From a virus, in IMG/VR virus record IMGVR_UViG_3300025289_000033, positions 1 through 53,037 of that record: a stretch of DNA of 53,037 nucleotides. One strand, written 5' to 3'. The position numbers and the translations under genes are program-made. Of this stretch, positions 8,325 through 46,643 are shown one piece after another. Numbering within the stretch: position 1 is the stretch's first letter; each line of letters begins with the position of its first letter. The notes beneath the pieces are model-generated. The model saw only the letters and a program-made list of their open reading frames with translations. It was not told the DNA's origin and made no database searches.

Positions 8325-8615
8325 ACCGCAATGCTCAATACGGTTTTTAATTGCTTTCAGTAAGTTTTCAATATCAGGGCATCCCCATTTACCGGCCTCA
8401 CCAGTTAATGCTGCATCTTTTCCTGTCAATAAAGGGTCTAACCATGTCGTTGGGATAACAGAAGCACAGCGGTTAACACAAGCTATATTTAATTGCTCTT
8501 TATGAGCATTTAATGAACTTGCCATTTTTGCACTGCACTCTTTTGAGCTTATTTCACCTTTAACGTAGGCTGATGATGCCTCAATCATTTTTTCCAATAA
8601 GTCGTAATCATTCAT
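8322..8615 (-). CDS. hypothetical cassette-type protein, 97 aa
   Basis: Helical N-terminus with a motif SVIPTTWLDPLLTGKDAALT and a C-terminal 'CPDIENLLKAIKNRIE'. I recall the 'P-T-T-W-L-D-P-L-L-T-G' and 'D-I-E-x-L-L-x-x-(V/I)-(K/R)-x-R-I' pair in small Bacteroidetes proteins of unknown role. Its stop codon TAA forms the boundary of the palindromic element copy 1. Confidence 0.7.
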   Translation of the reverse strand: MNDYDLLEKMIEASSAYVKGEISSKECSAKMASSLNAHKEQLNIACVNRCASVIPTTWLDPLLTGKDAALTGEAGKWGCPDIENLLKAIKNRIEHCG

Positions 8616-8659
8616 AATATTTCGTTTTAATTTGTTCGCAACTAAACATAGCTAAACCG

Positions 8660-8884
8660 TTATCGGTCATTGCTGACAGCATATTCAAGCGGACTTTCTC
8701 CCTTTAATTTCTTTACTATTAAATCACAAGTATCTTGGTCATGCCATTGTTCATCTTGGTATTGTGCTGTTAGAAATCCGTCCCACACTATTTGTTGCAA
8801 CGAACCGCTAACATTGTATAACTGAACATTGCCAGCATCATCGGTAATTTTAATTTCTATTTTCATATCAACTTTTATTTTCAA
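8660..8884 (-). CDS. hypothetical protein, 74 aa
   Basis: Begins with a beta-hairpin (MKIEIKITDDAGNVQLYNV) and continues with a helix and charged segment. The stop TAA (8660) is followed on the coding strand by CGGTTTAGC, the same TAACGGTTT junction as the palindromic element copy 1, but the palindrome itself is missing. No function recognised. Confidence 0.6.
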   Translation of the reverse strand: MKIKVDMKIEIKITDDAGNVQLYNVSGSLQQIVWDGFLTAQYQDEQWHDQDTCDLIVKKLKGESPLEYAVSNDR

Positions 8885-16724: not shown

Positions 16725-17102
16725 ATGGAAGAGATAGGAAAATTGATTAAGAAACTACCGATTGAATCAGGTGCAAAGAAAGACGGTTCTGGTGATTGGA
16801 GTAAAATGTCATTTGTAATTCAGGTGAAGGATTCAAAGTACCCAACTGAAATATGTTTTGACACGTTCAATTCAGAGTTGATACAGTTTATATCCGACAC
16901 AAGTTTGGACACAGTGATTAAAGTAGCGTTTAGCATTAAGAGCAGGGAATACAATGGAAGATACTTTACAGGCGCAACAGCGTACAGTGCGGAGGTTGTG
17001 CGTGATATGGGCAACGAAGAAGTAAGAGTACCCAAGAACGAGTGGAACGATATTAAGAAAGATGCGTTACAGCCTGTGGAAGACGACCAACTACCTTTTT
17101 AA
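16725..17102 (+). CDS. DUF3127-type single-stranded DNA-binding protein
   Basis: 125 residues. The body matches the Bacteroidetes DUF3127 OB-fold family: GKLIKKLPIESGAKKDGSGDW, FVIQVKDSKYPTEICFDTF, and FSIKSREYNGRYFTGATAYS. The C-terminus is the SSB-type acidic tip EDDQLPF. The family is expected to bind single-stranded DNA and recruit partners by its tip. It is encoded beside a helicase, consistent with replication or recombination. A plausible coding extension in the -1 frame follows the stop (see findings). Confidence 0.85.
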   Translation: MEEIGKLIKKLPIESGAKKDGSGDWSKMSFVIQVKDSKYPTEICFDTFNSELIQFISDTSLDTVIKVAFSIKSREYNGRYFTGATAYSAEVVRDMGNEEVRVPKNEWNDIKKDALQPVEDDQLPF

Positions 17103-17886: not shown

Positions 17887-18123
17887 ATGGTGACACCAAA
17901 AGGAAATAACATATTAGTAACGTTAATCGAAGAAAATGTAAACACTTCGTTGATCATTCCTGAAACGGCAACAAAGAAAGACTTGCAGTGGGGCGTGTGT
18001 GTAAAAGGCAACGAAGAAGTAAAAACAGATTCAATGGTGCTATTCAACACAAAGGGGTGCTTTAGTAAAGATGGTAATTACATTGTAGGTACAAACAAAA
18101 TACTTTATTGGCATGAACAATAG
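17887..18123 (+). CDS. GroES-like co-chaperonin, 78 aa (first of three)
   Basis: The pattern is that of Cpn10: VTPKGNNILVTLIEENVNTS (strand with 'P-x-x-x-x-(I/V)-L-V'), SLIIPETATKKDLQWGVCV (end of mobile loop and strand), 'VKTDSMVLFNTKGC' and a C-terminal DGNYIVGTNKILYW. Length (78) fits one GroES domain, but the mobile loop is shortened and lacks the GG-I/V pair. It overlaps the next gene by 11 bases. Phage GroES analogues (T4 gp31, RB49 CocO) help host GroEL fold the capsid protein; that role is inferred. Confidence 0.8.
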   Translation: MVTPKGNNILVTLIEENVNTSLIIPETATKKDLQWGVCVKGNEEVKTDSMVLFNTKGCFSKDGNYIVGTNKILYWHEQ

Positions 18124-18808
18124 CGCAGGAGCAAAACAATCCTACACTACAGACAAGTTACCGTCACAGATGATGAACAATAACGTTCTTATCAGGATAG
18201 ACTTTAATCCGATGGAAGACGTTGTGTTAGACAGTGGAATAATATTGTCAGGAGTTGGCGGTGTGATGTGGAATGAATCAGCACACGTAGCAAGGTATGG
18301 CGTGGTGACTAAAATACCAAAAGTATTAAAGACACGCCCACAGTATCATTTTAACGGCTGTATGGAGTGGAAAACAACCATAGAGATAGAAGAAGGAGAT
18401 ACAGTATATTTCACTAAGATAGGCTCTGCAAATGCCGTGGAACTGATTGTGGGCGGTGTGTTGTATTACATAATGAACTACTCAGACTTGGTGTTTACAA
18501 AGCGTGGAAACAAAATGATACCGTTAAACGGATATTGTTTAGTAGAAAAGGTGATGAAAGAAAGTGTGCAATCGAGCATAATAAAAACTTTGGATGCAGA
18601 GCAGGATAAGAGGTTGGGTGTGGTCGTGGTGAATGGAACAAATACAGAATACCACTACGGTTCAAAGCTGTATGATGCAGACGTGGAAGTAGGCGATGAA
18701 GTTGTGTTTGATGGTGGCTTTTGGACAGCGATAGAATACAGCCTGTTTAAGACGATAGATAGGGAATTGGGGTTTGTGCAGAAAATATTTATAGTGGGTG
18801 TGTTATGA
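18113..18808 (+). CDS. tandem GroES-like protein with two domains, 231 aa
   Basis: Two co-chaperonin-like domains in one chain. The first (residues about 19-120) has NNVLIRIDFNPMEDVVLDSG, IILSGVGGV (mobile-loop-like GG) and EEGDTVYFTKIG plus a closing NYSDLVFTKRG. The second (about 122-225) has PLNGYCLVEKVMKESVQS, RLGVVVVNGTNTE, DVEVGDEVVFDGG and a closing strand. Fusion of two GroES units is unusual, and a heptamer would have pseudo-symmetry. Overlaps the third gene by four bases. An in-frame ATG at 18170 could also be the start. Confidence 0.75.
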   Translation: MNNSAGAKQSYTTDKLPSQMMNNNVLIRIDFNPMEDVVLDSGIILSGVGGVMWNESAHVARYGVVTKIPKVLKTRPQYHFNGCMEWKTTIEIEEGDTVYFTKIGSANAVELIVGGVLYYIMNYSDLVFTKRGNKMIPLNGYCLVEKVMKESVQSSIIKTLDAEQDKRLGVVVVNGTNTEYHYGSKLYDADVEVGDEVVFDGGFWTAIEYSLFKTIDRELGFVQKIFIVGVL

Positions 18809-19050
18809 AAGGAAAAGTACCAAAAGGAAAGATACTTGTAAAGAGAATAGACAAGTTAACAAAGACTGCGGGTGGTGTGATAATACCCAATGCAGTAGAA
18901 GAAAGACAGAAGCGTGGTGAGGTGGTTATCGGTGGTGATGAAGTGTGTGTAGGAGATAGCGTAATCTTCACCACAAGGGGAACAGAGATAGAACTTGACG
19001 GAAGTAAATATTTGGTGATAGGGGAGAGGGAGGTGTTATACATAGAATAA
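18805..19050 (+). CDS. GroES-like co-chaperonin, 81 aa (third of three)
   Basis: The most canonical copy: PKGKILVKRIDKLTKTAGGV, then IIPNAVEERQKRGEVVIGG (complete mobile loop with KTAGGVIIP), VCVGDSVIFTTRGTEIELDG and YLVIGEREVLYI. The order and spacing match Cpn10 but the protein is about 15 residues shorter than GroES. It is followed by a strong terminator at 19073-19103, which ends the operon before the terminase genes. Confidence 0.88.
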   Translation: MKGKVPKGKILVKRIDKLTKTAGGVIIPNAVEERQKRGEVVIGGDEVCVGDSVIFTTRGTEIELDGSKYLVIGEREVLYIE

Positions 19051-19072: not shown

Positions 19073-19103
19073 AAGCTGTATCATTCGTGGTGCAGCTTTT
19101 TTT
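19073..19103 (+). terminator. intrinsic terminator after the co-chaperonin genes
   Basis: AAGCTG-TATCA-TTCG-TGGTG-CAGCTT forms an 11-bp stem with a UUCG loop, followed by seven T. The T-run continues into the promoter at 19124-19131. Confidence 0.9.
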
Positions 19104-19123
19104 ATGCCTAAATTTCAGCGTGT

Positions 19124-19149: not shown

Positions 19150-19866
19150 ATGGATAGAGACATAAAATCACTTGACTGTTCAAAAATGTCTATTCACCCG
19201 AACTCACCACAGCTTGTGACGTTCTTGGAGAAAGAGATACCACAGTTAAAAATATTTACAGATTTCAAGGAAAAGACGTTCACCAAGTCGCAGGTGCTAC
19301 GTTATATAGTATTAATGTACGACCCGAACTCACCCATTCATCAAATGAACTCACTTGACTATTGGGGACAGAAATGGGAAGCGGCTGCGTATGCAGGATT
19401 TCCACAGACAAAGTCAAAGCATGACGGGCAACAGAGGTTTGACGAGCGTGTGGTACAGATGGTGTTAGGAAAAAATAAAGACGTATTAGACATGATACTT
19501 CTTTATACAAAGTGGACAAACAAAAAAGATTGGGACTACCTTGTGTATCTACAAGAGGCTATGGCAGGACACGTGCTGAGTGCTATGAAAGAAAAGCAGG
19601 ACATTAAGTCAATCAAGGAGGTGAACACTTTGTGGCGTGAGAAAAATGCTATCGAAAAGAAAATGTCAAATCAGGCAGTACCGGAGACAGAGGATTTTGT
19701 GTCGAGATTCTATTATCAGATTGAGCAGTCGAGACTCGCCATTAGACCGGAGGACTATGCTCACGCACTTGCCGATGGCGATGACTTAAGACTAGATTGC
19801 CCTTATGGGGTGAATTTTACTATACAACAGCTTAGATTTGTAGGAGATAAATTGCCTGATGAGTAA
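19150..19866 (+). CDS. putative small terminase subunit
   Basis: 238 residues, directly upstream of and overlapping the large terminase by eight bases. It is helical with a central Trp/Lys-rich region (LLYTKWTNKKDWDYLVYLQE) and a coiled-coil-like segment (KSIKEVNTLWREKNAIEKKM). Position and length fit a TerS-type packaging protein or the conserved gene preceding TerL in Bacteroidetes podoviruses. No sequence motif proves it. Confidence 0.6.
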   Translation: MDRDIKSLDCSKMSIHPNSPQLVTFLEKEIPQLKIFTDFKEKTFTKSQVLRYIVLMYDPNSPIHQMNSLDYWGQKWEAAAYAGFPQTKSKHDGQQRFDERVVQMVLGKNKDVLDMILLYTKWTNKKDWDYLVYLQEAMAGHVLSAMKEKQDIKSIKEVNTLWREKNAIEKKMSNQAVPETEDFVSRFYYQIEQSRLAIRPEDYAHALADGDDLRLDCPYGVNFTIQQLRFVGDKLPDE

Positions 19867-22800
19867 TCTAAAGGACTATATACCCGCTGACAAGTACGTG
19901 GTGTTAAATGATAATGACCCCGACTTGCGACCAATCGTGTTGAAACTACCCGAACCACCACCGTTGAAATACATTGATGGGTACGGTGATTATTACAAAG
20001 ACCAACGATTTAAGAGATTGGAAGTGCCAAGAAGATTAATTGACTTGGAAGAAGAAGCGGTACAATCCGTTAAAGAGGAATTGGCTACCAATAAGAACAA
20101 TGTTGTAACACTACTAAAAATTCAGAAGAAGTTTTGGGAAATGCTTACCGAAAGGAATAAGGATTTTAAAAACGAAATAAATTTCATAAGAAAATTTTGG
20201 TGGCATAGAATGAATGGATATTGGTTTTACAATATGGGTAAACCAACATACATTACAGGAAAGCACTTCTTTTATTTGAACGTGTGGAGAATGGATACCA
20301 ACGAGGGTGAAGACAGACCCGGATATAGAGATAGAGATAGAAAAGAGTATCTGTTTGTTGATTATTGCTATACGTCAAACGAAACATTTGAAAAGATAGA
20401 CAAAGACGGATTTGCCGTACCTAATGAAGACGGAACTTATTCTATGATTAACTTAGTGGATAGGATTGGCAACAAACACGTGCCAAGAAGAATATGCTAT
20501 GGAAAGCATCAGGCAAAGAACAGGCGTTCAGGAAATACAAATAAGTCAATTAGCAATGGAGTTGAGGTAATTACAAGGACGATAGGAACAGACGGTGGTG
20601 GTATTCAAAGTTATAGTAACGATAACGCAGAAGAACATTTTAAGATGAAACTTCTTCCATCGTTTGATAAGTTTCCTATATGGATAAAACCGTTTACGTC
20701 TTCGGGTAGAACTTCTGATTCACTAAAATTCGATGTAGGCAAAAACGAATACGCAGTTGATTCCTTACAAACAAAATTTGTGTATGCAACAACGGCATCA
20801 GAGAAGTATTTCGATGGTAAAAAGATGACATACCTACTTGTTGACGAAGCCGGAAAATGTTTTGGAAAAGGAACGGAAATAAGAATGTTTGATGGTTCTG
20901 TAAAGAATGTTGAAGATATACGAGTTGGGGATGTTTTGATGGGGGATGATTCTTTGCCGAGAAATGTTTTAAGGTTAGCACGTGGTGTTGACGAAATGTA
21001 TAAGATAATTCCAAATCAGGGGAAAGAGTGGACTTGTAACAGCGAGCATATATTATGTTTGAAGTCAAGTGATGGTAATGCCATACCCGGAGTTAGAGGT
21101 GGTGATTATTTTAAGAAAACCATAAAGGAATATCTTAAAATGAAACCAAGACACAAACTTGCATCTGTTATGTATAAGAAACCAGTCAAATACACAGAGA
21201 ACAAGCACGTAGTAGAACCTTATTTTTTGGGATTGTGGCTTGGTGATGGGTATCATGGTGGTGTTAATATTACGAATATAGACATTGAAATAATTGATTA
21301 TTTAAAAGAGTTTTCATCATTAAACGATACTCAAATGGTTAGGGATGAAATAACATATCATCTATCCAGAAAATCAGAATATACATATTTTTTTAATAAT
21401 GGTGTAGAAGAACTTGTGTTTTATTCAGTAGGAGAAATAGCGTCATATTTTGATACTACTATTAGTTCTATAAATTGGACTATAAAAACAAAAGACAATT
21501 ATCGTGGTTACGAGATAATTAAACAAAAGAATTTTAGCTTAATAGAAGAATTAAGAAAGATAGGTGTTATAGGTAACAAACATATTCCAAAAGATTACCT
21601 TTTTGATTCAGAAGAAAACAGACTTAGTTTATTAGCGGGATTAATTGATTCGGATGGATACGCATATACAGGCAATAGAACAGGATATGAAGTAACACAA
21701 AAAAGAAAAGTTCTTGCCGAAAATATAAGAAGACTTGCACTTGATTTGGGATTTAGTTGTTCTATGTATCCAAAGATTGCAAGAATGAAAAGAGAAGACG
21801 GAAGTGTTTATGAATGTGAGGTATTTCGTGTTTCTATATATGGACTTGATTTGTGGAGAATACCGTGTAAGGTAAACAGGAAAAGATACGAAAGAAAGCC
21901 GCATCATCCAAATACGAGAAATCCGTTACATACAGGATTTTCGGTAGAGAGTATTGGCGTTGGTGATTATTACGGATTTGTTATAGACGGAAACAGAAGA
22001 TTTTTATTGGAAGACAATACGGTAGCGCACAATACTTCCAATGTCAGTGTATTAAAACGCCATGACGTAAATAAGAACTGTTGCGCACAAGGAAATGGAA
22101 GAATCATATTTGGATACTTAGACTATCCATCAACGAGTGATGAATTAACGGATGGTAGTTTTGATTACAGGTTCTTGGCAAATACGTCAAACTTTTATCA
22201 AAGGATAAAGTCAAGCGGACAAACATTTTCTGGACTATTTAGGTTGTTTATACCCGCAACAGAGGGTCTTGACGGGTTTATTGACAGCTATGGATTTTCG
22301 GTTAAAGATACGATATTGGACTATCAGAGAGAAGAAGGATTCACACAGACAGCACTTGAATTTTTACAGGGCAAAAGAGACGTGTTACTTCAGCGTGGTG
22401 ATTCAGAATCCATGAGAGCATATAGGGAAGAAAAGAAATTGTTCCCTATTAAGTATGCAGACTGTTGGTTAGGAGAAGCAGGTTCAATAGGATTTCCACT
22501 TGAAAGGATAGATGAAAGGCTTGCTGAATTAAGGAGAGAAGACAAAACAGTGCGTGGTGATTTAGTGTGGGTAAACGGGTTTGGAAGCGATGTTGAATTT
22601 GTACACGATGAAGAAAATGGTAGGTTTAGGATAAGTGAATTTCCAAGTCCTGCCGTATCTAATAAAAGAATACAGATAAGCACATATAGTTCCATAAAGG
22701 GAAAACATATTCCAATGTGGCGACCACAGTATCCAAACAAGTACGTGTTAGGGTGCGACCCGTTTAAGTTCGGAACAAAACAGGATTCACGGACAGGTGC

Positions 22801-23371
22801 TTCACTTGGCAAGAAAAGTAGGTTGTCTGACGGTGGTATAGCTATACTACTTAAATACGACCCATCAGTTGATGGCGGTAAGGAAATAAAAGATTGGGAC
22901 ACATATAAGTTTGTGTTGTCTTACAGACATAGACCCGCAAATTCAAATGAGTTTAACGAAGATACGTTAAAGGCAGCGATATATTTTGGGGCGATGGTGT
23001 ACCCTGAAACAAACTTAGATGAAACGCTTAGATATTTTATCGAAAAAGAATATGGAGCATATCTTCTTTACGACATAGACTTAAAGACAGGAAGATACAA
23101 GGAAAAAGCGGGGTGTGATTCGTTGGAAAGGTCTAAGCAATTGCTATTCAGTAGAACAAGGGACTACCTTGAAAACAGGTGTCACGTGGAAGCATTTGCT
23201 GAATATCTACAAGAATGTAAGGAGATTACTGGAATGGAGATGATGAGACACTATGATAGGTTAACAGCACATGGTATGTGTCTAATGGGTGCAGAAACTC
23301 CATACGCAGAAGAAATGCTAAGCGATAATTCTGATTCGTATAACGCAGAGGACTATTGGAATTTTGCATAA
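19859..23371 (+). CDS. terL: large terminase subunit interrupted by an intein
   Basis: 1170 residues; excision of the intein (residues 334-725) leaves 778. N-extein: an atypical Walker A-like CYGKHQAKNRRSGNTNKS (about 213-230) and Walker B TYLLVDEAGK (324-333). C-extein: TSNVSVLKRHDVNK, a coupling motif IIFGYLDYPST, and an RNase H-like nuclease start VLGCDPFKFG. The spliced junction DEAGK-TSNV resembles crAss-like and related terminases. The protein powers DNA packaging and cuts concatemers. Confidence 0.92.
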   Translation: MSNLKDYIPADKYVVLNDNDPDLRPIVLKLPEPPPLKYIDGYGDYYKDQRFKRLEVPRRLIDLEEEAVQSVKEELATNKNNVVTLLKIQKKFWEMLTERNKDFKNEINFIRKFWWHRMNGYWFYNMGKPTYITGKHFFYLNVWRMDTNEGEDRPGYRDRDRKEYLFVDYCYTSNETFEKIDKDGFAVPNEDGTYSMINLVDRIGNKHVPRRICYGKHQAKNRRSGNTNKSISNGVEVITRTIGTDGGGIQSYSNDNAEEHFKMKLLPSFDKFPIWIKPFTSSGRTSDSLKFDVGKNEYAVDSLQTKFVYATTASEKYFDGKKMTYLLVDEAGKCFGKGTEIRMFDGSVKNVEDIRVGDVLMGDDSLPRNVLRLARGVDEMYKIIPNQGKEWTCNSEHILCLKSSDGNAIPGVRGGDYFKKTIKEYLKMKPRHKLASVMYKKPVKYTENKHVVEPYFLGLWLGDGYHGGVNITNIDIEIIDYLKEFSSLNDTQMVRDEITYHLSRKSEYTYFFNNGVEELVFYSVGEIASYFDTTISSINWTIKTKDNYRGYEIIKQKNFSLIEELRKIGVIGNKHIPKDYLFDSEENRLSLLAGLIDSDGYAYTGNRTGYEVTQKRKVLAENIRRLALDLGFSCSMYPKIARMKREDGSVYECEVFRVSIYGLDLWRIPCKVNRKRYERKPHHPNTRNPLHTGFSVESIGVGDYYGFVIDGNRRFLLEDNTVAHNTSNVSVLKRHDVNKNCCAQGNGRIIFGYLDYPSTSDELTDGSFDYRFLANTSNFYQRIKSSGQTFSGLFRLFIPATEGLDGFIDSYGFSVKDTILDYQREEGFTQTALEFLQGKRDVLLQRGDSESMRAYREEKKLFPIKYADCWLGEAGSIGFPLERIDERLAELRREDKTVRGDLVWVNGFGSDVEFVHDEENGRFRISEFPSPAVSNKRIQISTYSSIKGKHIPMWRPQYPNKYVLGCDPFKFGTKQDSRTGASLGKKSRLSDGGIAILLKYDPSVDGGKEIKDWDTYKFVLSYRHRPANSNEFNEDTLKAAIYFGAMVYPETNLDETLRYFIEKEYGAYLLYDIDLKTGRYKEKAGCDSLERSKQLLFSRTRDYLENRCHVEAFAEYLQECKEITGMEMMRHYDRLTAHGMCLMGAETPYAEEMLSDNSDSYNAEDYWNFA
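20858..22033 (+). mobile_element. intein with LAGLIDADG homing endonuclease, 392 residues
   Basis: Begins at Cys334 with CFGKGTEIRMFDGSVKNVED (block A, 'C-x-x-x-G-T') and IRVGDVLMGDD; block B is TCNSEHILCL. The C-terminal splice site is LLEDNTVAHN followed by Thr. The DOD endonuclease has two motifs, PYFLGLWLGDGYH and SLLAGLIDSDGYAY, each with its catalytic Asp. All splicing residues (Cys1, block B His, penultimate His, terminal Asn, +1 Thr) are present, so it is probably active. The insertion site is the Walker B/ATPase coupling region, a favoured intein location. Confidence 0.95.
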
Positions 23372-30000: not shown

Positions 30001-30012
30001 ATTTAAAAAAGT

Positions 30013-30043
30013 TTGGTGGATTGCGAATTAATACTTACCTTTG
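30013..30043 (+). promoter_or_regulatory. class I promoter, TTGGTGGATTG...TTACCTTTG
   Basis: TTG 30013-30015, 20-base spacer, TACCTTTG 30036-30043. The extended word TTTGGTGGATTG matches the promoters at 45614 and 46352. Confidence 0.75.
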
Positions 30044-30047
30044 TTGC

Positions 30048-30113
30048 GTTGGATTCATACATAATAATTGGTTAATGGTTTTGGGGGGTTGCCGTTGGGT
30101 AGCCCCTTTTTTT
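30048..30113 (+). ncRNA. candidate small RNA A, about 65 nt
   Basis: Lies between class I promoter 30013-30043 and the terminator at 30085-30113, with no room for a gene. It shares TTCATAnATAATA and GGTT...GGGGTTGCC with the unit at 45649-45711. The terminator hairpin GGGGTTGCC-GTTG-GGTAGCCCC has compensating differences from its paralogue. It may be a regulatory RNA or a short attenuated leader. Confidence 0.6.
30085..30113 (+). terminator. intrinsic terminator of small RNA A
   Basis: A 9-bp stem with two non-Watson-Crick pairs and loop GTTG, followed by seven T. The T-run includes the -33 TTTG of the promoter at 30112-30141. Confidence 0.85.
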
Positions 30114-30141
30114 GTGCTTAATTTTAACGTTGCTATCTTTG
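30112..30141 (+). promoter_or_regulatory. class II promoter, TTTGTGCTTAA...GCTATCTTTG
   Basis: TTG 30112-30114 at the end of the terminator T-tract, 19-base spacer, TATCTTTG 30134-30141, ATG at 30158. Confidence 0.75.
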
Positions 30142-36532: not shown

Positions 36533-38085
36533 TGGCAGAAGGATACGGAATAGGAATGAGTGCAAAACCGATAGATTTCGTATCGGGTGCTATGGCGTTT
36601 AATCAGGCGGCAGCAGATGAGAAGTTGCGTCAGATAAAGGAGAACAAGGAACAAGTTTCTGATAATTACAAAAAAGTATTAGAAGCATCGTCCATAAAGT
36701 TACTACCTGAACTAACGGGCAAGGTGCGTGACAGGTATCAGAAGGAAATAGAAGATTACCGTACCGACATAATGAATAAATTCAAGGAGAGTAATGGTAA
36801 GTTGACCATGCAGCAGCAGCGTGAAATCCAAGACGGCTTTATAGACAAACAGCAGAGTATGCTGTATGATATTAATGGGTTAAAGAAAATAGAAGAAGCG
36901 CAAAAACTAAGGTTAGACCCACGGTATGACGGTGTTTACGATAATAGGATTATTGACGAGGCGATTATAGAAGCACAGAAAAACATAGAAGAAGGTCGTG
37001 GTATAGGAAGTGATTTTACAGCCAAGATTGCGAGTGCATTAATACCACAATCCAATAGTAATTATTTTGCAAAGCACTATGGTAATTTAGTAAAAGGTCT
37101 TAATACAGAGGTTAGTGCAGCGTTGCGTGGTGGAATATTGACAAGCACACAGAAAAGTGGATTAAGTGTAGAAGACCAAGAAAGTTATGATAAGGCAAAT
37201 TGGGCTGTTGAAAATGCACTTGAAACAAATCCTTTCTATAAAAACCAGTTTACTGATGCCAACGGAAATGTAAATACAGAGGCAAGGGCGCGTGTGAGAA
37301 AAGAAATTGTAGATTCTATAAGTCCAATAGATACACAGCAGACACAGGCAAGGTATCAGAGTTCGGGTGGTCGTGGTTCTAATCCATACAGTAGCATGAT
37401 TGACTATACACCAAAATCATTTAAGTATGGTGATAAAACCTATGACAACTTCGTTCAGATTAGGGGTGATAAGTCGCAAACAGACAGAAATTTTTTTATT
37501 GACAACGCTGTTAACTTGGATACAGGTGAAAAATCCCAACTAACAGAAGATAATGCCAAGATTGTTGGATTTGATGTAAACAAAGGCGTTCTGTTGTTAA
37601 AGGGCAAGGGTGGTATAGCATTAAAAGCAGGAAAACCAGTGTTTATAGATGAAGAAAAATCACCCGCTAAAATGGATGGTGTATGGAAGGGTAAAACAGA
37701 AAACGAAATGACACCTGCTTGGCAAGAAACTATTGTGCGTGGTGGATACGAAGGAACTAAAGACATAGAAGGTGTTGAGAATGTTTCTATGAATAAAGAC
37801 GACAATGGGAATATAGTTGTAACAGGAACGGTTCTTGTTGATAAAAAACTCCCGTTTACAGGCAATGAAAAAATAAAGGTTAAAAAAGTGTTTAAGACAT
37901 TCACAGACCCATTAGCAGAGGCAACGTATGAAGCTCAATTATATGAAAATAAAGAAGCAGCAACACCATTTCTAAGAACGATGGCTGTTAACGGCAAACC
38001 ACTTGAAAAATATTTCGATGAATATAAGCCGGGTGAACAGAAACCTGCTGAAAACAAAACAACAACTAATAAGTACGGCATATAA
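36532..38085 (+). CDS. putative internal/cargo virion protein, 517 aa
   Basis: Helical N-terminal third (QAAADEKLRQIKENKEQVSD), a flexible middle and a beta-region (KAGKPVFIDEEKSPAKMDGV). No enzyme motif was found. It overlaps both neighbours by one base and lies in the internal-protein block. Probably packaged or tail-associated. Confidence 0.6.
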   Translation: MAEGYGIGMSAKPIDFVSGAMAFNQAAADEKLRQIKENKEQVSDNYKKVLEASSIKLLPELTGKVRDRYQKEIEDYRTDIMNKFKESNGKLTMQQQREIQDGFIDKQQSMLYDINGLKKIEEAQKLRLDPRYDGVYDNRIIDEAIIEAQKNIEEGRGIGSDFTAKIASALIPQSNSNYFAKHYGNLVKGLNTEVSAALRGGILTSTQKSGLSVEDQESYDKANWAVENALETNPFYKNQFTDANGNVNTEARARVRKEIVDSISPIDTQQTQARYQSSGGRGSNPYSSMIDYTPKSFKYGDKTYDNFVQIRGDKSQTDRNFFIDNAVNLDTGEKSQLTEDNAKIVGFDVNKGVLLLKGKGGIALKAGKPVFIDEEKSPAKMDGVWKGKTENEMTPAWQETIVRGGYEGTKDIEGVENVSMNKDDNGNIVVTGTVLVDKKLPFTGNEKIKVKKVFKTFTDPLAEATYEAQLYENKEAATPFLRTMAVNGKPLEKYFDEYKPGEQKPAENKTTTNKYGI

Positions 38086-41000
38086 TGGAAGAATACAGAA
38101 AAAAGGTTTATTCAGCACTGAAGGGTGAACTCGGTGATAGTTTTACTAAAACAGAATCCGAATTTGATTCCTTATTGGATAACGATAGCGAATATGCCAA
38201 AAAAGTATATAGTGCATTAAAGGGTGAGTTGGGTGATTCTTTTGACAAAACGGAAGATGATTTTTACAGTTTAGTAAAAAAAAAAGAAGTTGGCGAAAAA
38301 GTTTCAGAATCTTTGGCAGAACCTATTACTACGGGCGAGAAAGCTAATTTAGTTTCCACACCCGACCAAGAGTTTATTTCACAGGATGAATTTGAACGTA
38401 GGAATTGGTTTTCACCTAAAGCGGGTGATGAATTATCTTTTAAAGAAAAAGAAACACCAAAGAAAAACTACCTAAACATATTTAATCAGAAAGACGATTA
38501 CCGTGTGGCAGATGCGAGTGGTTCAACCGTGTCTATGTTAAGTAATGTAAAAGAAAACATACTTCAAACACAAGCACCACTTGACTATCTTATTGACGTT
38601 GCAGATATAAAGAACAGGATAGATGCAATACCTAAATACTTCCCTGAACACGCAGGACAAGCAGAGGAACTAAAAACATTGTTGGCAAATGCTAATCCAA
38701 AAAACATAAGTGAAGTTCGTGATGCGATAGACCAAATAGAAAAAGAAACGTTTAAGCCTACTGTTGGTTTATACGGTGTAGCAGAAACACCATACCAAAG
38801 AGAGGTGATAAACAACCCAACTATTCGTGCTGCAAAAAGATTGCGTGAAGATACCAATAAGCTAAGAGAAACATTCTCACAGACAGGCGTAAGGGATGGT
38901 ATAGTTGATTCGTATTTAGATATATCGTCAAACATATCAAAAGGTTCTGTTGAGGGTTTAAAAGACTATGTAAAAGGCTACACCGAACTTCGTGCTGAAT
39001 TAGCAAAGAACGAGGGTGTGGGAAAGCTAACAGAAAAGCTACAAGACGGAAACACAGAAACATTAGATTCAAACGATAAGTTACTGTTAAATGTGTTGGC
39101 ACAAAACGATGCAGCACACACAACATTAGACAAGAAGATACCTACCTCTTATAAAATCGGTGAAGCAATGGGAACTTCACTTGGTTTTATGTCTGAATAT
39201 ATCCTTACAGCAGGGTTGGTAGAAGGCATTGGGGCGGGTGTTAAAGCCACAAGCAAACTTGGTAGGATAGGAATGGGTGCTACTGTCAAATTGGCACAGG
39301 CAGGTGTTCAGACAGCAGCTATGCCTGCAATGTGGCAAAAAACAGCCATAAACGTTTCCAATGGCGATAATTTTGGTGAAGCATTGTTAAATTCATATTG
39401 GGATACAGCAGCAGAAAACCTATCGGAGAGAATATTCATGGGTAACCCAATTGCGGGTGGTGCGGGGAAAAAGACAGCCAACATATTACAAAGAGCAGGC
39501 ATTAACTTTAAAGCAGACAAGGGTGCGTTGGGTGTGTTTAAGAACGTGTTGGAAGAATCAGCAGAAGAAAAGATAGGAGAGATATTTACAGCACCAAAAG
39601 ACTATGATAGCTTTAAAGAGTTTTGGAAAGGCTATACCGATTTAGAACAAAACAAAATAATGCTTGGTTCAGTAGGATTGATGGTGGGTGCTATGGGTTC
39701 AGCAACATTAGCGGGAAATTCAATAGCAAAAAAGCAAAACGACATAAGGGTAAAACGACTTGAAAAACTTGTACCGTCAGACATACGTTCAGAGATAGAC
39801 GTGGTGTTTGATAGCAAGGACTTAACAACAGAAGAACAAATAGATTTAATTAATGGTATATTAACCGATAAACTCAACTCAAAGGAAATAGAAGGTGATA
39901 TACCTACCGTTGTGGGTAATGCAAAGAAATACGCACAATATAAGCTAAGCCAACTAACAGCAGAATCAACAGATGAAACAGCCGTTGTAGAGAATGGTGA
40001 AATGACTATTGGCGAAGTGGAAGAAGCAGGCAACAGTCAGGAAAAAATAGACTACCTGAATGAGCAGGGTGTGAAAATACCTGACGGCACAACAGGGGAA
40101 CAGTTAGATAAGCTGTATGAAGAACCCAAAATCGAAAGTAAACAAGGCGGTAGAGAAACGTCAAAAGGAAGTGAAAAGGGAACAGGCAAAGAGGCAAAGG
40201 CAGGCAAAGCGGAGGTAGAGTTCAAGCCGTTTGCGGACGTGGTATTAAAGAGTAAGACAAAGAAAGAAGCCTTTGACAAAGTAAGTAAAATCAAGAATGT
40301 AAGTGCTGAAGTAAGCGATGCGTTCAGGAAGAAATACGACCCCGAAGAAAAGCTGACACCACGACAAGCGTTTGATAAATTTTATGATGAAATTAAGCCC
40401 ACAGACACGCAAATTAAGCCCGTAGAGCCACTATCTCCTAAAAAAGGTGTAAGTGTACCAACAGAGGGTAAAGTGGGTGAAAAAGGGGTGAAAACGAGAA
40501 TAGCGAAACCAAAGATAGAAGAACCTGATTTCTCAAAGAAACCATTAAAAGTAGAAAGCGGTAAGTCTGTAATATCGGCGGGAAATGTTTCTGCATCGGA
40601 TGTTAAAAGCGTGGTAAATGGTGTAATTAAGAAAGGCTTAAAAGACAATAAAGGAAACATTCAAAAAGCAAAACAATTTCCAAAGGAAGCGGCAGATGCT
40701 ATGATGCGTGGATTATTTGGTAGTTCTGCGAGTGTTGGAAGTCTTTCTTTGAAAGACCAATTAGATAAGATTAATTTTAGACCTGATAATTATAAATATT
40801 CCAAAAATGACTTAAATCAAGCACATTATGATGGCATAAAAATGCTTATTGATATGGGGTTTGAAACAACTGATGAAGTGTGGTCTTATTTTTCTAAGAT
40901 AGGAGTAGTTGATAGAATAAAAGAAAAAAAGCAACCCGTATCTGAGCAAGGTACGACAGACGGGGGTGATATTACTTCATCCCCTGTTTCTAAAAGTAAT

Positions 41001-44000
41001 GTTGAATCGGGTGTGAAACCCATAAAAACAAAACAAAATGAAAAAGAACAAGCCAAAGGGCAAGGGCGGGAAGAAGGGCTGTTAGCCAAAAATGAAAAAG
41101 CAGACAAACTTTTAAGTGAAGGGCTGTCTGACTTAGCTGACTTAGTGGGTGCTAAAATATCCATTACAGGTGAACAGCGTGTGCGTGTGAAAAATGCTAT
41201 TGCAAAAGTAGCAGAAGGACTAATACTTAAAGGAGAAGTAAAACTTGAACAATTAGCTATGGCTATCAAGGAATACTTCTCCAAAAGTAATATTGACATA
41301 TCGGAAGAACTGATAAATGAAACAATAAAAGAAAGAGGTTATGCCAAAGGGAACGAAAGTAGAAAAGTGCTACCAGAAGTTGAAAAAGACAAAGGGGAAG
41401 GGAAGCGCAGCAGCGATATGTCAGGCATCGACGAAACAAAGCCTGAAAACGGGAAAAAAGCTAAAAAAGTAAGTTCATCAAGATTTGGTGTTCGATATGC
41501 TTTTGGTGATAATTATTCTGAAAAAGGAAAACAAAAGTATAGAGAAGAAAATCTATATGAATACAAACCTGAATCACAGGAAGAAGTTGTGGCTATTGCA
41601 AGGGCAGTTGTGGCAGATAATTCAGTAGAAGATGTTGCAGACTTGTTTTATGGCACAAAAGTTCCACGTAGGGTTCGTACTGCTATCGGTGTGTTATTAG
41701 CTGATAAGTATTCTGAAATGGCAGAGGAATCACTTAGTAACGGTGATGAGGTTGCTGGTGATTCTTTTATAGACAAGGAATCAATGGTAATGGAAACCAT
41801 ACAGAGAGAGATAGCAACCGAATCAGGAAGAGACATATCTTTCTTTGGTTCTGAATTTGTAATGGAGAGACTTACGCCATATAAAACAGCCAGAAAGGTT
41901 CAACTGGCTATGGGTAAACACGCCAAAGAGGTAAAAGAAAGCAAGGGATATAAGACGGTTAAGAAAATAGTAGAGGAAGAACTAAGTGGGCTTCGTGGTG
42001 AAGTGTTAAAAGAAGTAGGTAAAAACCAAAGAGTAAAACAGGCAAAAGAGAAAGCAAAAAAACAGGTAGATACCAAGCGTGCAAAAATACAAAAGGACAT
42101 AAGCGACCTGACAGATATGCTTCGTGCAGCATCTAAAAAATCGCTTAGCTCTTCTATAATAGGATTAAACAACGACCAAATAGAAATCGGTGGTAAGTTG
42201 GTGCTGAAGTATATTGAATTAGGTATATATGATGTTAAAAAACTTGTTGTAAAACTAAAGAATAAGTTTAAGGAAGTAGGCGTTGACATTACAGACGAAC
42301 AAGCCAAGAGCATGATACCCGAAATCGGTGGTAAATCGGTTGATGAATTAGAGAAAGAACAGATACTTGAACAGGCAGCAGCGCAATTGGCACAAGAAGA
42401 GTTTGGTGTGGTAAGGGACAAGAAAACGCCAAAGTCAGACCCCATAAAACAAATGGTATCTACCCTTGTGTCTAAGTTCAGGGAACGTGCAAAAGCGGGT
42501 GATAAAGCTGTACCAAAGAGCAATATGGATATTGTAAAGGAAGCCATTCTTAACAGGTCTGATTATATGGATGTTTGGGAACAGGCAAGACAAGATGCAA
42601 TAGCCTTGATAGACCAAATGGTTGCAGAAGAAAAATTAACAGAATCACAGGCAGATGTTTATAAGAAAAGAGTAGAGGATGCCTACGACAAGGCTACCAC
42701 CTTTTCGGTGTCAGAGAAAAGAGTTCAGCAATTAATAAGAGAATCATTTAAGGAAAGAGATATATCAATAGATGACGTTGTGAGAGACCACTACGAAAGA
42801 AAGGAACTTCATAAAAAAGATTTAATTGATGACTTAATTCAGAAGTCTGGTCTTACAGAAGATGCAGCCACAGAACTTGCAGATGCCATTGACAATGCGT
42901 TTAATACGTTAATGATACAAAAGGGAGAGGCATTGCTTAGAAAATATGTCGATACCACTGTTAAGGGAACTATTAAGAAATCTGCTATAACAAAACTTAA
43001 CGAACTTGTTAATTTGATAGACAGAAGTAAGTTTTCAAGTGTAATAAAGGAAAGCGACCTGTTTAATGCTATAAGAGAATCGGTTAATGCCCGCAACATT
43101 GATTTGAACGAGTTGGTGAAAAAGAATGGTTCAGAGAAGTTGATAGAAAAGGCAAGGATAATATCTGACATATTAAATAAGATGGAATTATCGGAAGAAG
43201 ATGCAGCCAAATTATCTGACGCGATTGGAAGTGCATTTGATTCTTTAATGAAAAAAAGAGGTGATTCGTTGGTTGGAAAGATGATAAATAAAAGGGCAAA
43301 AGAAAAGTCAACAAATCCCCAAAAATCACCAATAGCAGAGATAATTGAGCTTGTTAATATAGGCGCAATAGAATCACCTGAATTTGATAATATTTTCGCA
43401 GAGATGTATGGCGTGTCTGAACTAAAGGAAGAAGACAGACAAGAAATCATAAAACGTGGTAAAAAGATACAGAAAATAAAAAGTGCTACTGTAAGACACA
43501 AGGAAGAACAGAGATTAATGTCATTTATATTGGATTTAAAAGGCGTTAACATGGCAGAGGTTTTAACAGGATTCTGGTATGCACACGTTTTGTCAGGTGT
43601 TACTACGCACATGAGAAACGTATCTGATGCTTACATATCTTCTTGGATAGAACTAATGGGATTAGCGGGGTATAATCCAACAGATATAAGAAGAGCTATT
43701 AAGGCACACAAAAGGGGGATGAAAGGTGAGGGGCGTGATAGGCTTGTGGAATCATTTAAAACGGGATACACACCGCTATCAAAGAAACTTGAAATACCGT
43801 CAATATTGGAAAGGATACAGGCACTTCCGAAAGAAGACACGGCAATATCGAGAGGTGTAGCTTGGGCTGCGAATAAATATAAAGATTTCTTTAAGCATAT
43901 ACCAAGACTACTTATTGGAACAGATTCATGGATTTATGCTGGTGCAAAAGAAATGGCTTCTGACCTTATTGTTTCAAGAGAGGCAAGAAAACAACTTGAA

Positions 44001-45611
44001 ATATTAAAAGGAAGAAAACTAACGAAAGACGAAAAAAAGGCATTGCAAGAACAGATAGACAAAAAGTTGTATATTGACGATGCAAGTATGGCTGCGTTCA
44101 GGAAACAGGTGGATAATGAATCAGAAGACTATAAAAAAATACAAGAGGAATTTGGAGAAGAACCAACAGGCTATTCAAGAAGGGAAAAGAATTTGCGTGT
44201 GTATGAACTGATAGACCAAGCAAGGGGTGTAGATGTAACAGATAAGGCATTTGATATAGCAGGAAGGGCTATTGGTAATATAAATGCTTATGGAATAATA
44301 GGATGGGCTGTTGATGGATTATCTCGTGCGCTTAGAGTGCTAAGAGTAAAGATTAGCAAACCAGAGGTTATAATAGTAAAGGGCAAGCCTGTGATTACAT
44401 TCAATAAAACAAAAACAGTAGAAATAAGACCCGCATCACTTGTAATTCCTTTTACAAGAATTGTTGCTAACGTAGCCACAAGAAATATAGGTTGGAATCC
44501 ATACGTGGCTATATACAGGGCATCCGTTGGCAGTTTTGGTGCTATATTGGGTAAGGACAGTAAGTACTATGTTGAAATGACACCGGAAGAAAAATCAAAG
44601 GCATGGCAGAAAGTGGTTAAAATTGCTGTTATACAAAGTCTGCTAATGGCACTTACAGCACCCGGAGATGACGATGACCCAGTGATAAGAATTACGTTAA
44701 ACGGAACAGGAAACACAGAGAAGAACAAACAGCTATTGGCTTCAGGATGGAAACCATATTCAATACAAATAGGGGATTGGAGTTTTGATTACAGGATACT
44801 TGGTGGGTTGTCAATGATATTAATGCCAATAGGATACGTTAGGGATAAGCAAAGATTTTCTGATACAGAAATGAACGAATTAGAATTAATGGCTACTGCT
44901 AATTTTATGGCAATAGGACATATTCTTAAAACGACACCCCTGTATGCAATAAACAGAATGTTTGAGGCACTTGGTTCGTTTATGTCGGGAGATGGAGAAA
45001 TGGGTTCAAAACAGGCAACGCAGATATTGAGCAGCATGGGAACAGGGTTTGTATCCCCGCGTGTGTTAAAAGATATTGAAGACGTGTTTGATTTAATAGT
45101 TGATTCTGATGCACCAAGAGAAAATGCAGAAACAGTAATGGCAAGGGCAACACAATATTTACCGTTTACAGACTTTACAAAAGGAAGGGAAATGTTTGAT
45201 GTGTTTGGAAGACCAATACCTGTTAAGTTTACTACGGCACAGATAATAGAAAGTGTTAAACAAGACGAAGACGTTCAATATTACTTAAAGCAAGGCTATT
45301 TCAGACCAGCGGTATCAATGCGTTCTACTACTTTCACACTTGAAGATGACAGGGGAAACACTGTTATAAGGAAGTTGAATACGAGTGATGAAAGAGAAGT
45401 AGAGGCATTTAATCAATACGAACAAGCAATTGGCAAATTGTTTAGAGATGCTGTTATGGAAAATAAGGCAGACGGATTAGAGGGTGAAGAATTTGTGAGT
45501 AAGATGAGGAGAGATTGGGATAGAATACAGAAAGATGCAAAGAGCGAGGTGTATAATTGGAGTGAAAATATTCCGGTTAAATACGATAGAAAAGCAAATG
45601 TAGTTGAATAA
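38085..45611 (+). CDS. giant polyvalent/internal virion protein, 2508 aa
   Basis: N-terminus has a tandem repeat, KKVYSALKGELGDSF at residues 7-21 and again at 40-54, each followed by an acidic helix. A low-complexity charged linker covers about 670-1130. Large-polyvalent-protein segments occur at about 1000-1090 (LSDLADLVGAKISITGEQRV) and 1370-1430 (LIGLNNDQIEIGGKLVL-type). A 90-110-residue helical unit is duplicated near 1545 and 1660 (both with L/A-I-R-E-S and L/I-x-x-E-D-A-A-x-x-L-(A/S)-D-A-I). The C-terminal part has HVLSGVTTHMRNVSDAYIS and hydrophobic helices like LPD38. It is probably ejected with DNA. Confidence 0.7.
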   Translation: MEEYRKKVYSALKGELGDSFTKTESEFDSLLDNDSEYAKKVYSALKGELGDSFDKTEDDFYSLVKKKEVGEKVSESLAEPITTGEKANLVSTPDQEFISQDEFERRNWFSPKAGDELSFKEKETPKKNYLNIFNQKDDYRVADASGSTVSMLSNVKENILQTQAPLDYLIDVADIKNRIDAIPKYFPEHAGQAEELKTLLANANPKNISEVRDAIDQIEKETFKPTVGLYGVAETPYQREVINNPTIRAAKRLREDTNKLRETFSQTGVRDGIVDSYLDISSNISKGSVEGLKDYVKGYTELRAELAKNEGVGKLTEKLQDGNTETLDSNDKLLLNVLAQNDAAHTTLDKKIPTSYKIGEAMGTSLGFMSEYILTAGLVEGIGAGVKATSKLGRIGMGATVKLAQAGVQTAAMPAMWQKTAINVSNGDNFGEALLNSYWDTAAENLSERIFMGNPIAGGAGKKTANILQRAGINFKADKGALGVFKNVLEESAEEKIGEIFTAPKDYDSFKEFWKGYTDLEQNKIMLGSVGLMVGAMGSATLAGNSIAKKQNDIRVKRLEKLVPSDIRSEIDVVFDSKDLTTEEQIDLINGILTDKLNSKEIEGDIPTVVGNAKKYAQYKLSQLTAESTDETAVVENGEMTIGEVEEAGNSQEKIDYLNEQGVKIPDGTTGEQLDKLYEEPKIESKQGGRETSKGSEKGTGKEAKAGKAEVEFKPFADVVLKSKTKKEAFDKVSKIKNVSAEVSDAFRKKYDPEEKLTPRQAFDKFYDEIKPTDTQIKPVEPLSPKKGVSVPTEGKVGEKGVKTRIAKPKIEEPDFSKKPLKVESGKSVISAGNVSASDVKSVVNGVIKKGLKDNKGNIQKAKQFPKEAADAMMRGLFGSSASVGSLSLKDQLDKINFRPDNYKYSKNDLNQAHYDGIKMLIDMGFETTDEVWSYFSKIGVVDRIKEKKQPVSEQGTTDGGDITSSPVSKSNVESGVKPIKTKQNEKEQAKGQGREEGLLAKNEKADKLLSEGLSDLADLVGAKISITGEQRVRVKNAIAKVAEGLILKGEVKLEQLAMAIKEYFSKSNIDISEELINETIKERGYAKGNESRKVLPEVEKDKGEGKRSSDMSGIDETKPENGKKAKKVSSSRFGVRYAFGDNYSEKGKQKYREENLYEYKPESQEEVVAIARAVVADNSVEDVADLFYGTKVPRRVRTAIGVLLADKYSEMAEESLSNGDEVAGDSFIDKESMVMETIQREIATESGRDISFFGSEFVMERLTPYKTARKVQLAMGKHAKEVKESKGYKTVKKIVEEELSGLRGEVLKEVGKNQRVKQAKEKAKKQVDTKRAKIQKDISDLTDMLRAASKKSLSSSIIGLNNDQIEIGGKLVLKYIELGIYDVKKLVVKLKNKFKEVGVDITDEQAKSMIPEIGGKSVDELEKEQILEQAAAQLAQEEFGVVRDKKTPKSDPIKQMVSTLVSKFRERAKAGDKAVPKSNMDIVKEAILNRSDYMDVWEQARQDAIALIDQMVAEEKLTESQADVYKKRVEDAYDKATTFSVSEKRVQQLIRESFKERDISIDDVVRDHYERKELHKKDLIDDLIQKSGLTEDAATELADAIDNAFNTLMIQKGEALLRKYVDTTVKGTIKKSAITKLNELVNLIDRSKFSSVIKESDLFNAIRESVNARNIDLNELVKKNGSEKLIEKARIISDILNKMELSEEDAAKLSDAIGSAFDSLMKKRGDSLVGKMINKRAKEKSTNPQKSPIAEIIELVNIGAIESPEFDNIFAEMYGVSELKEEDRQEIIKRGKKIQKIKSATVRHKEEQRLMSFILDLKGVNMAEVLTGFWYAHVLSGVTTHMRNVSDAYISSWIELMGLAGYNPTDIRRAIKAHKRGMKGEGRDRLVESFKTGYTPLSKKLEIPSILERIQALPKEDTAISRGVAWAANKYKDFFKHIPRLLIGTDSWIYAGAKEMASDLIVSREARKQLEILKGRKLTKDEKKALQEQIDKKLYIDDASMAAFRKQVDNESEDYKKIQEEFGEEPTGYSRREKNLRVYELIDQARGVDVTDKAFDIAGRAIGNINAYGIIGWAVDGLSRALRVLRVKISKPEVIIVKGKPVITFNKTKTVEIRPASLVIPFTRIVANVATRNIGWNPYVAIYRASVGSFGAILGKDSKYYVEMTPEEKSKAWQKVVKIAVIQSLLMALTAPGDDDDPVIRITLNGTGNTEKNKQLLASGWKPYSIQIGDWSFDYRILGGLSMILMPIGYVRDKQRFSDTEMNELELMATANFMAIGHILKTTPLYAINRMFEALGSFMSGDGEMGSKQATQILSSMGTGFVSPRVLKDIEDVFDLIVDSDAPRENAETVMARATQYLPFTDFTKGREMFDVFGRPIPVKFTTAQIIESVKQDEDVQYYLKQGYFRPAVSMRSTTFTLEDDRGNTVIRKLNTSDEREVEAFNQYEQAIGKLFRDAVMENKADGLEGEEFVSKMRRDWDRIQKDAKSEVYNWSENIPVKYDRKANVVE

Positions 45612-45613
45612 AT

Positions 45614-45644
45614 TTGGTAGATTGTGTAATAATATTTACCTTTG
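45614..45644 (+). promoter_or_regulatory. class I promoter, TTGGTAGATTG...TTACCTTTG
   Basis: TTG 45614-45616, 20-base spacer, TACCTTTG 45637-45644. It starts three bases after the stop of the giant gene. Confidence 0.75.
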
Positions 45645-46594: not shown

Positions 46595-46615
46595 AGGGGC
46601 AACAGCCCTTTTTTT
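46595..46615 (+). terminator. intrinsic terminator
   Basis: AGGGGC-AACA-GCCCTT, six paired bases with one G-U, followed by a T-run that continues as TTTTGTGCTTAAA into the promoter below. Confidence 0.8.
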
Positions 46616-46643
46616 GTGCTTAAACTTTGCTGTGTTATCTTTG
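46614..46643 (+). promoter_or_regulatory. class II promoter, TTTGTGCTTAAA...GTGTTATCTTTG
   Basis: TTG 46614-46616 at the end of the terminator T-run, TATCTTTG 46636-46643 and ATG 46656. The sequence TTTTTTTGTGCTTAA is identical to that at 30107-30121. Confidence 0.75.

What the first reader, a model, noticed from the sequence alone, without database searches (positions are those of the whole stretch)
17887..19050. Three overlapping genes carry four GroES-like domains just before the terminase
Gene 17887-18123 (one domain), 18113-18808 (two fused domains) and 18805-19050 (one domain, the only one with a complete KTAGGVIIP mobile loop) are translationally overlapped and end in one strong terminator. 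Phages that carry a co-chaperonin (T4 gp31, RB49 CocO) normally have a single gene; a fused pair flanked by two singles is unusual. One possibility is a hetero-oligomeric cap with pseudo-symmetry; another is that some copies have become structural proteins with a GroES fold. No GroEL is visible.
Basis: partly seen in the sequence, partly recalled or inferred. Interest (0 to 1): 0.75.

Follow-up and report, generated by a model that had tools for sequence, protein, structure and literature searches.

The report
Phage double-plus-single GroES cap genes
A Bacteroidetes-type phage carries three small genes with four copies of the GroES chaperonin-lid domain; a fused double copy beside the DNA-packaging gene turns out to be a widespread trait of its phage relatives, always accompanied by a single copy in the complete genomes checked, much like the mixed lid of plant chloroplasts.

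Summary
Gene 3 (18805-19050) is a canonical Cpn10/GroES. Gene 2 (18113-18808) has two Cpn10-like domains. Gene 1 (17887-18123) is a weak but real Cpn10 relative: third of 503 window ORFs with a GroES profile free of window sequences, E 2.7e-4, next ORF 0.43. No GroEL lies in the 53 kb fragment.

The fused pair is not an oddity of this phage. A tandem Cpn10 gene upstream of TerL was found in all 76 IMG/VR relatives with upstream DNA. It also occurs in cultured Pervagoviridae, Baltivirus/Bacelvirus, elemoviruses and Panino, and is already PHROG_13932. All nine complete genomes checked that carry the tandem also carry one separate single Cpn10; five also encode GroEL. Gundel lacks all three. A divergent relative, L118, has a three-domain fusion plus a single.

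Best reading: a phage co-chaperonin set, a double plus single(s) that probably form a mixed seven-domain lid on host GroEL, as chloroplast Cpn20+Cpn10 do, serving capsid folding as T4 gp31 does. Homology and co-occurrence are shown; mixed-ring assembly and clients are inferred. Gene 1 could be a decaying copy. What looks new is the consistent double+single pairing and its compact four-domain form here.

The parts
17887..18123 (+). Gene 1: 78-aa single Cpn10-like domain, divergent
   Evidence: GroES profile without window sequences E 2.7e-4, third of 503 ORFs; NCBIfam GroES models 0.0019 and weaker, below cut-off; BLASTP to gene 3, 33% identity; Pfam 0.045
17941..17961 (+). Gene 1 mobile-loop remnant NTSLIIP: hydrophobic tripeptide kept, glycine pair lost
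   Evidence: sequence, alignments
18113..18808 (+). Gene 2: 231-aa tandem of two Cpn10-like domains; probable true start 18170 or 18173
   Evidence: Pfam Cpn10 E 6.8e-9, two stretches; tandem-family profile E 1.1e-6, only significant window ORF; Foldseek best 29 PDB matches all Cpn10, including tandem Cpn20 7ekq_R over 204 columns, on a low-confidence model
18167..18499 (+). Gene 2 domain 1, with a canonical-looking mobile loop DSGIILSG at 18230-18253
   Evidence: hhalign to GroES alignment E 3.2e-6; maps to domain 1 of the tandem family (1.6e-4) rather than domain 2 (5.5e-3)
18500..18805 (+). Gene 2 domain 2, eroded loop SSIIKT at 18572-18589
   Evidence: hhalign to GroES alignment E 8.9e-6; maps to domain 2 of the tandem family (7.8e-5) rather than domain 1 (0.003)
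18805..19050 (+). Gene 3: 81-aa canonical Cpn10/GroES; mobile loop TAGGVIIP at 18865-18888
   Evidence: Pfam 3.1e-12; PHROG_3188 8.8e-12; PDB GroES chains down to 5.8e-12 and Cpn20 7ekq_R 1.2e-12
19073..19105 (+). Intrinsic terminator closing the three-gene unit
   Evidence: 11-bp stem, 4-nt loop, T run; -15.4 kcal/mol, z -3.4
19150..19866 (+). 238-aa ORF between the GroES genes and TerL, candidate small terminase by position
   Evidence: position only; no Pfam or PHROG match; small ORFs occupy the same slot in phi19:3, ctfjg026, L027 and L118
19859..23371 (+). Large terminase (TerL), interrupted by an intein
   Evidence: PHROG_6681 E 4.5e-56; Hom_end_hint, Hom_end, LAGLIDADG_3

Best explanation
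The three genes encode a phage co-chaperonin set. The tandem protein (gene 2) and the canonical single protein (gene 3), perhaps with gene 1, assemble into a lid of about seven GroES-type domains that caps the host's GroEL during infection and helps fold phage proteins, most likely virion or packaging proteins made from the adjoining late module. This combines the job of T4 gp31 with the mixed double-plus-single build of the chloroplast Cpn20/Cpn10 lid. Shown: Cpn10 homology of all four domains, kept hydrophobic loop motifs in at least three of them, conservation of the tandem gene upstream of TerL, and constant co-occurrence with a single Cpn10. Inferred: mixed-ring assembly, docking on host GroEL, and the clients. 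I put co-chaperonin activity of the set at about 0.65 and true co-assembly of double and single chains at about 0.4.
For: Cpn10 homology of every domain. Tandem gene upstream of TerL in 76 of 76 IMG/VR relatives with upstream DNA and in cultured Calle, phi38:1, phi19:3, phi46:3, phi13:2, elemo, Panino and in ctfjg026. All nine complete genomes with the tandem also have one separate single Cpn10: phi19:3, phi46:3, phi13:2, phi18:3, Calle, phi38:1, Panino, elemo, ctfjg026; Gundel has no tandem, single or GroEL. GroEL is optional (five of the nine), so use of host GroEL is normal in this lineage. L118 has a triple-domain fusion plus a single. Precedents: chloroplast Cpn20 and Cpn23 combine with Cpn10 into functional rings of seven GroES-like domains (PMC5780408); A. 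thaliana Cpn10(1) works only as hetero-oligomer with Cpn20 (PMC4242682); T4 gp31 replaces GroES to fold the capsid protein (PMC3012670). Cpn10 is listed as a core protein of Pervagoviridae (PMC8776804).
Against: No interaction or activity data. Loops of gene 1 and of gene 2 domain 2 are degraded. AlphaFold models were poor: gene 2 mean pLDDT 48.7, gene 1 46.2, and the gene 1 model gave no meaningful match. In most relatives the single Cpn10 lies far from the tandem, so close linkage is not needed. Domain 1 of the wider tandem family has drifted far from GroES (hhalign 0.0014 over 21 columns). The nine complete genomes include close relatives, so they are about five or six independent lineages.
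Confidence: 0.55

Rival explanations
1. The tandem protein is a dedicated, self-sufficient co-chaperonin (homo-oligomer of doubles) and the singles work separately as ordinary GroES.
For: In most relatives the single Cpn10 sits elsewhere, usually near phage GroEL, while the tandem sits by TerL. Plasmodium Cpn20 alone can replace GroES in E. [quoted passage not shown]
Against: Constant co-occurrence of tandem and single, including in the four GroEL-less Pachyviridae genomes; physical linkage of double and singles in the window and, with TerL between, in L118.
Confidence: 0.25
2. The tandem protein is a packaging or structural protein that borrowed the GroES fold; only gene 3 is a co-chaperonin.
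For: Strict conservation beside TerL; strong drift of domain 1 in the wider family; it sits near the position of a small terminase in some phages.
Against: A separate small ORF lies between tandem and TerL in the window, ctfjg026, phi19:3, L027 and L118, and where it is missing (Calle, elemo, Panino) TerL carries an N-terminal extension, so the tandem is probably not the small terminase. It is not labelled structural in phi38:1 or phi19:3 records where most downstream neighbours are. Window domain 1 keeps a SGIILSG loop.
Confidence: 0.15
3. Gene 1 is a decaying duplicate of a Cpn10 domain with no function of its own; the working set is genes 2 and 3, equal in content to the relatives.
For: Gene 1 is the weakest match, its best relative is gene 3 of the same window, and no relative searched has a counterpart.
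Against: The frame is intact, the hydrophobic tripeptide is kept, and it is preserved in three further contigs, which are however 100% identical over gene 2 and so not independent.
Confidence: 0.4

Closest known systems
PHROG_13932 'co-chaperonin GroES' (tandem Cpn10 by TerL in Pervagoviridae, Baltivirus, Elemovirus, Panino)
   Same: Two Cpn10-like domains in one ~180-230 aa chain just upstream of TerL; domains 1 and 2 map in order; phage also has a single Cpn10
   Different: Window protein is too divergent for the PHROG_13932 profile, has a more GroES-like domain 1, and is flanked by two singles in one unit
Chloroplast Cpn20/Cpn10 co-chaperonins (e.g. Chlamydomonas CPN11/20/23, PDB 7ekq)
   Same: Tandem double-domain chain plus single-domain chain(s); structural best full-length match is 7ekq_R
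   Different: Organellar, very distant in sequence, probably independent fusion; partner there is a plastid Cpn60 or the Clp core
T4 gp31 / RB49 CocO
   Same: Phage-encoded co-chaperonin without phage GroEL; expected client is a capsid protein
   Different: Single-domain homo-heptamer from one gene; no double-domain chain
Ordinary GroES/Cpn10 (PF00166, PHROG_3188)
   Same: Gene 3 is a plain member with a full mobile loop
   Different: Genes 1 and 2 are divergent; no GroEL gene in the fragment

Membership tests
Cpn10/GroES (PF00166) | Profile match over the curated cut-off | tested here: met
   Genes 2 (36.1 bits) and 3 (46.8 bits) over 21.1; gene 1 at 14.2 bits does not reach it
Cpn10/GroES (PF00166) | GroES beta-barrel fold in gene 1 | tested here: inconclusive
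   Model pLDDT 46.2; Foldseek gave nothing below E 1.6; sequence profile E 2.7e-4
Cpn10/GroES (PF00166) | GroES fold in gene 2 | tested here: met
   Best 29 PDB matches all Cpn10, best E 1.5e-4, although mean pLDDT is only 48.7 and domain 2 is poorly modelled
Cpn10/GroES (PF00166) | Mobile loop with hydrophobic tripeptide that binds GroEL | tested here: met
   Gene 3 GGVII complete; gene 2 domain 1 SGIIL; gene 1 TSLII without glycines; gene 2 domain 2 SSIIK eroded (sequence)
Cpn10/GroES (PF00166) | Heptameric ring that caps GroEL | not testable with these tools
   No complex prediction or biochemistry available
PHROG_13932 tandem co-chaperonin | Match to the PHROG profile | tested here: not met
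   No match of the window protein at E 1 or 0.001; a profile built here from seven relatives matches at 1.1e-6
PHROG_13932 tandem co-chaperonin | Two colinear Cpn10-like domains just upstream of TerL | tested here: met
   Domain-to-domain hhalign; position
Chloroplast-type Cpn20/Cpn10 hetero-oligomer | Tandem and single chains encoded together | tested here: met
   Window and nine complete relatives
Chloroplast-type Cpn20/Cpn10 hetero-oligomer | Mixed ring of about seven domains | not testable with these tools
   inference by analogy only
T4 gp31-type phage co-chaperonin | Needed to fold the phage's own capsid protein on host GroEL | not testable with these tools
   Only genome context: late module, no phage GroEL in the fragment

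The most novel reading that the evidence does not exclude
A whole lineage of Bacteroidetes podoviruses builds a hetero-oligomeric GroES-type lid from double- and single-domain chains, an independent invention of the chloroplast Cpn20/Cpn10 design, and in this phage the lid has three different chains and four domain types made from one operon, giving a fixed asymmetric cap on host GroEL.
Probability: 0.3. Interest if true: 0.75.

Novelty: new variant of a known kind. Interest (0 to 1): 0.5.

Why it matters
Chloroplast Cpn20 raises an old puzzle: how lids made of double domains fit a seven-fold chaperonin, and why a cell would mix doubles and singles. Simple culturable phages (phi38:1, Calle, elemo, phi19:3) appear to use the same double-plus-single recipe, some with host GroEL only. 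That would make the question testable in small genetic systems, and would give a second, independent case beside T4 gp31 of a phage reshaping the host folding cage. It also gives the many 'co-chaperonin GroES' annotations beside TerL a concrete architecture.

Tried and rejected
Close-homologue searches of the tandem protein and of TerL in IMG/VR returned only three contigs 100% identical to the window. No independent close relatives were found, so selection on gene 1 could not be measured. tblastn of gene 2, the 238-aa ORF and the major-capsid-position ORF against phage records found nothing. Multi-sequence TerL and tandem alignments were too diverse for pattern scans; two-sequence ones worked; a further one gave only the same contigs. 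The best GenBank tblastn hit of gene 3 (MT838442, human faeces) sits at the end of a small contig whose other ORFs read like bacterial chromosome genes, so it was discarded as a phage relative. Structure models of genes 1 and 2 were weak for lack of deep alignments; the gene 1 fold search is meaningless. The small 71-80 aa ORF upstream of the tandem gene in many relatives was considered as a counterpart of gene 1 and rejected: no Cpn10 match and different sequence. The small-terminase reading of the tandem was rejected as unlikely (separate ORF or TerL extension fills that slot). The count of TAnnTTTG promoter-like sites is only slightly above chance, so no promoter was assigned.

Full report
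WHAT IS THERE. The three ORFs are present as described. Gene 3 (81 aa) is a plain Cpn10/GroES with a complete mobile loop (KTAGGVIIP): Pfam 3.1e-12, PHROG_3188 8.8e-12, solved GroES structures at about 6e-12. Gene 2 (231 aa) has two Cpn10-like domains: Pfam 6.8e-9 with two stretches; each half matches a GroES alignment by itself (3.2e-6 and 8.9e-6). Gene 1 (78 aa) fails Pfam's cut-off (E 0.045) but is the third best of 503 six-frame ORFs of the window with a GroES profile that contains no window sequence (E 2.7e-4; next ORF 0.43), has weak matches to NCBI GroES models (0.0019, below their cut-offs) and is 33% identical to gene 3. I accept it as Cpn10-derived.

Details of the claim that need correction. 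The gene 1/gene 2 overlap rests on the longest start codon choice; relatives of gene 2 start right at the first domain, which favours Met20 or Met21 (18170/18173). The gene 2/gene 3 overlap (ATGA) is firm. Three of four loops keep the hydrophobic tripeptide: gene 3 VII, gene 2 domain 1 IIL, gene 1 LII. The terminator after gene 3 is a credible AT-rich hairpin. Between it and TerL lies a 238-aa ORF.

STRUCTURE. The gene 2 model has low overall confidence (pLDDT 48.7; domain 1 core 70-80, domain 2 below 50), yet the best 29 PDB matches are all Cpn10/GroES chains, and the tandem chloroplast co-chaperonin chain 7ekq_R is the one aligned over both halves. The alignment given to the model held only phage sequences from the window and its loci. 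The gene 1 model is uninformative.

WHAT PHAGE. The window is a linear IMG/VR fragment of 53,037 bases. Portal and TerL match, at 20-27% identity, podoviruses of Flavobacteriia: Cellulophaga phi19:3, phi46:3, phi13:2 (Pachyviridae), Calle and phi38:1 (Pervagoviridae), Flavobacterium elemoviruses, Maribacter Panino, and the uncultured ctfjg026.

THE DOUBLE IS A LINEAGE TRAIT. In these phages a 180-200 aa 'co-chaperonin GroES' gene sits directly upstream of TerL or one small ORF away. I retrieved 80 further IMG/VR contigs by TerL and searched them with a profile of the tandem family: 76 have it, all upstream of TerL; the other four contigs begin within 501 bases of the TerL match. Nearly all are 186-194 aa. 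The family is PHROG_13932, already named co-chaperonin GroES, and 'chaperonin cpn10' is listed as a core protein of Pervagoviridae (PMC8776804). Gene 2 of the window belongs with it: the tandem-family profile picks gene 2 as the only significant window ORF (1.1e-6), and domain 1 matches domain 1, domain 2 matches domain 2. It is too divergent for the PHROG profile itself.

DOUBLE GOES WITH SINGLE. In nine complete genomes with the tandem (phi19:3, phi46:3, phi13:2, phi18:3, Calle, phi38:1, Panino, elemo 6-9C, ctfjg026) there is always exactly one other Cpn10 match, a single-domain ORF elsewhere in the genome; five of the nine also encode GroEL, the four Pachyviridae do not. For elemo, Panino and ctfjg026 the Cpn10 search finds only the single, and the tandem is found by its own family profile. 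Tenacibaculum phage Gundel has no tandem, no single and no GroEL. Among the IMG/VR fragments, all seven with GroEL also have the single; fragments without a single are incomplete and not counted. The nine genomes include close relatives and stand for about five or six independent lineages. A divergent relative, L118 (and its near twin L035; TerL 30% identical to the window over its N-terminal part), has a 260-aa gene with the tandem plus a third Cpn10-like domain upstream of TerL, and a separate single Cpn10 just downstream of TerL. So the window (1+2+1) and L118 (3+1) both have four domains around TerL.

HOW IT LIKELY WORKS. The pattern matches the chloroplast system: a tandem chain (Cpn20) plus a single chain (Cpn10) that combine into functional rings of seven GroES-like domains (PMC5780408), where one single type works only together with the tandem (PMC4242682). 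In the phage, the lid would sit on host GroEL, since no GroEL is in the fragment and GroEL is optional in the lineage. By analogy with T4 gp31, which replaces GroES to fold the capsid protein (PMC3012670), clients would be virion proteins. Co-assembly, docking and clients are inferences; none was tested.

LIMITS. The fragment may lack 10-25 kb, judged by the 60-79 kb of relatives, so a GroEL gene elsewhere cannot be excluded. The identical contigs give no information on selection. The literature search covers open-access PMC only; I found no paper describing the tandem nature or the pairing with a single, but subscription papers (for example the original Cellulophaga phage genome paper) were not available.

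Noticed in passing
19859-23371: TerL is interrupted by an intein with Hint and LAGLIDADG homing endonuclease domains, starting at about residue 333, right after the DEAG motif that is probably Walker B.
   Followed up: partly
L118:4722-5501 and 8411-8665; L035:6587-7369: Three-domain Cpn10 fusion upstream of TerL plus a separate single Cpn10 downstream of TerL in an uncultured relative; a triple fusion is even rarer than the double.
   Followed up: partly
Calle gp14, elemo gp31, Panino 89, L017:9651-9878, L026:4909-5187, L027:6835-7071, L118:8181-8411: A conserved 71-92 aa ORF of unknown function (motif RKI..G..., ending near WK....... IEY) next to the tandem gene in most relatives and just after TerL in L118; no family match in Pfam for those scanned.
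   Followed up: no
30012-30043 with 45613-45644; 30111-30141 with 46613-46643: Two pairs of similar promoter-like sequences (TTTG-N19/20-TAnnTTTG) in intergenic gaps of the structural region, possibly repeated late promoters.
   Followed up: no
16725-17102: DUF3127 protein / PHROG single-strand DNA binding protein upstream of the GroES unit.
   Followed up: no
38085-45611: A 2508-aa ORF in the late region, similar in size to the giant structural proteins of related flavophages.
   Followed up: no
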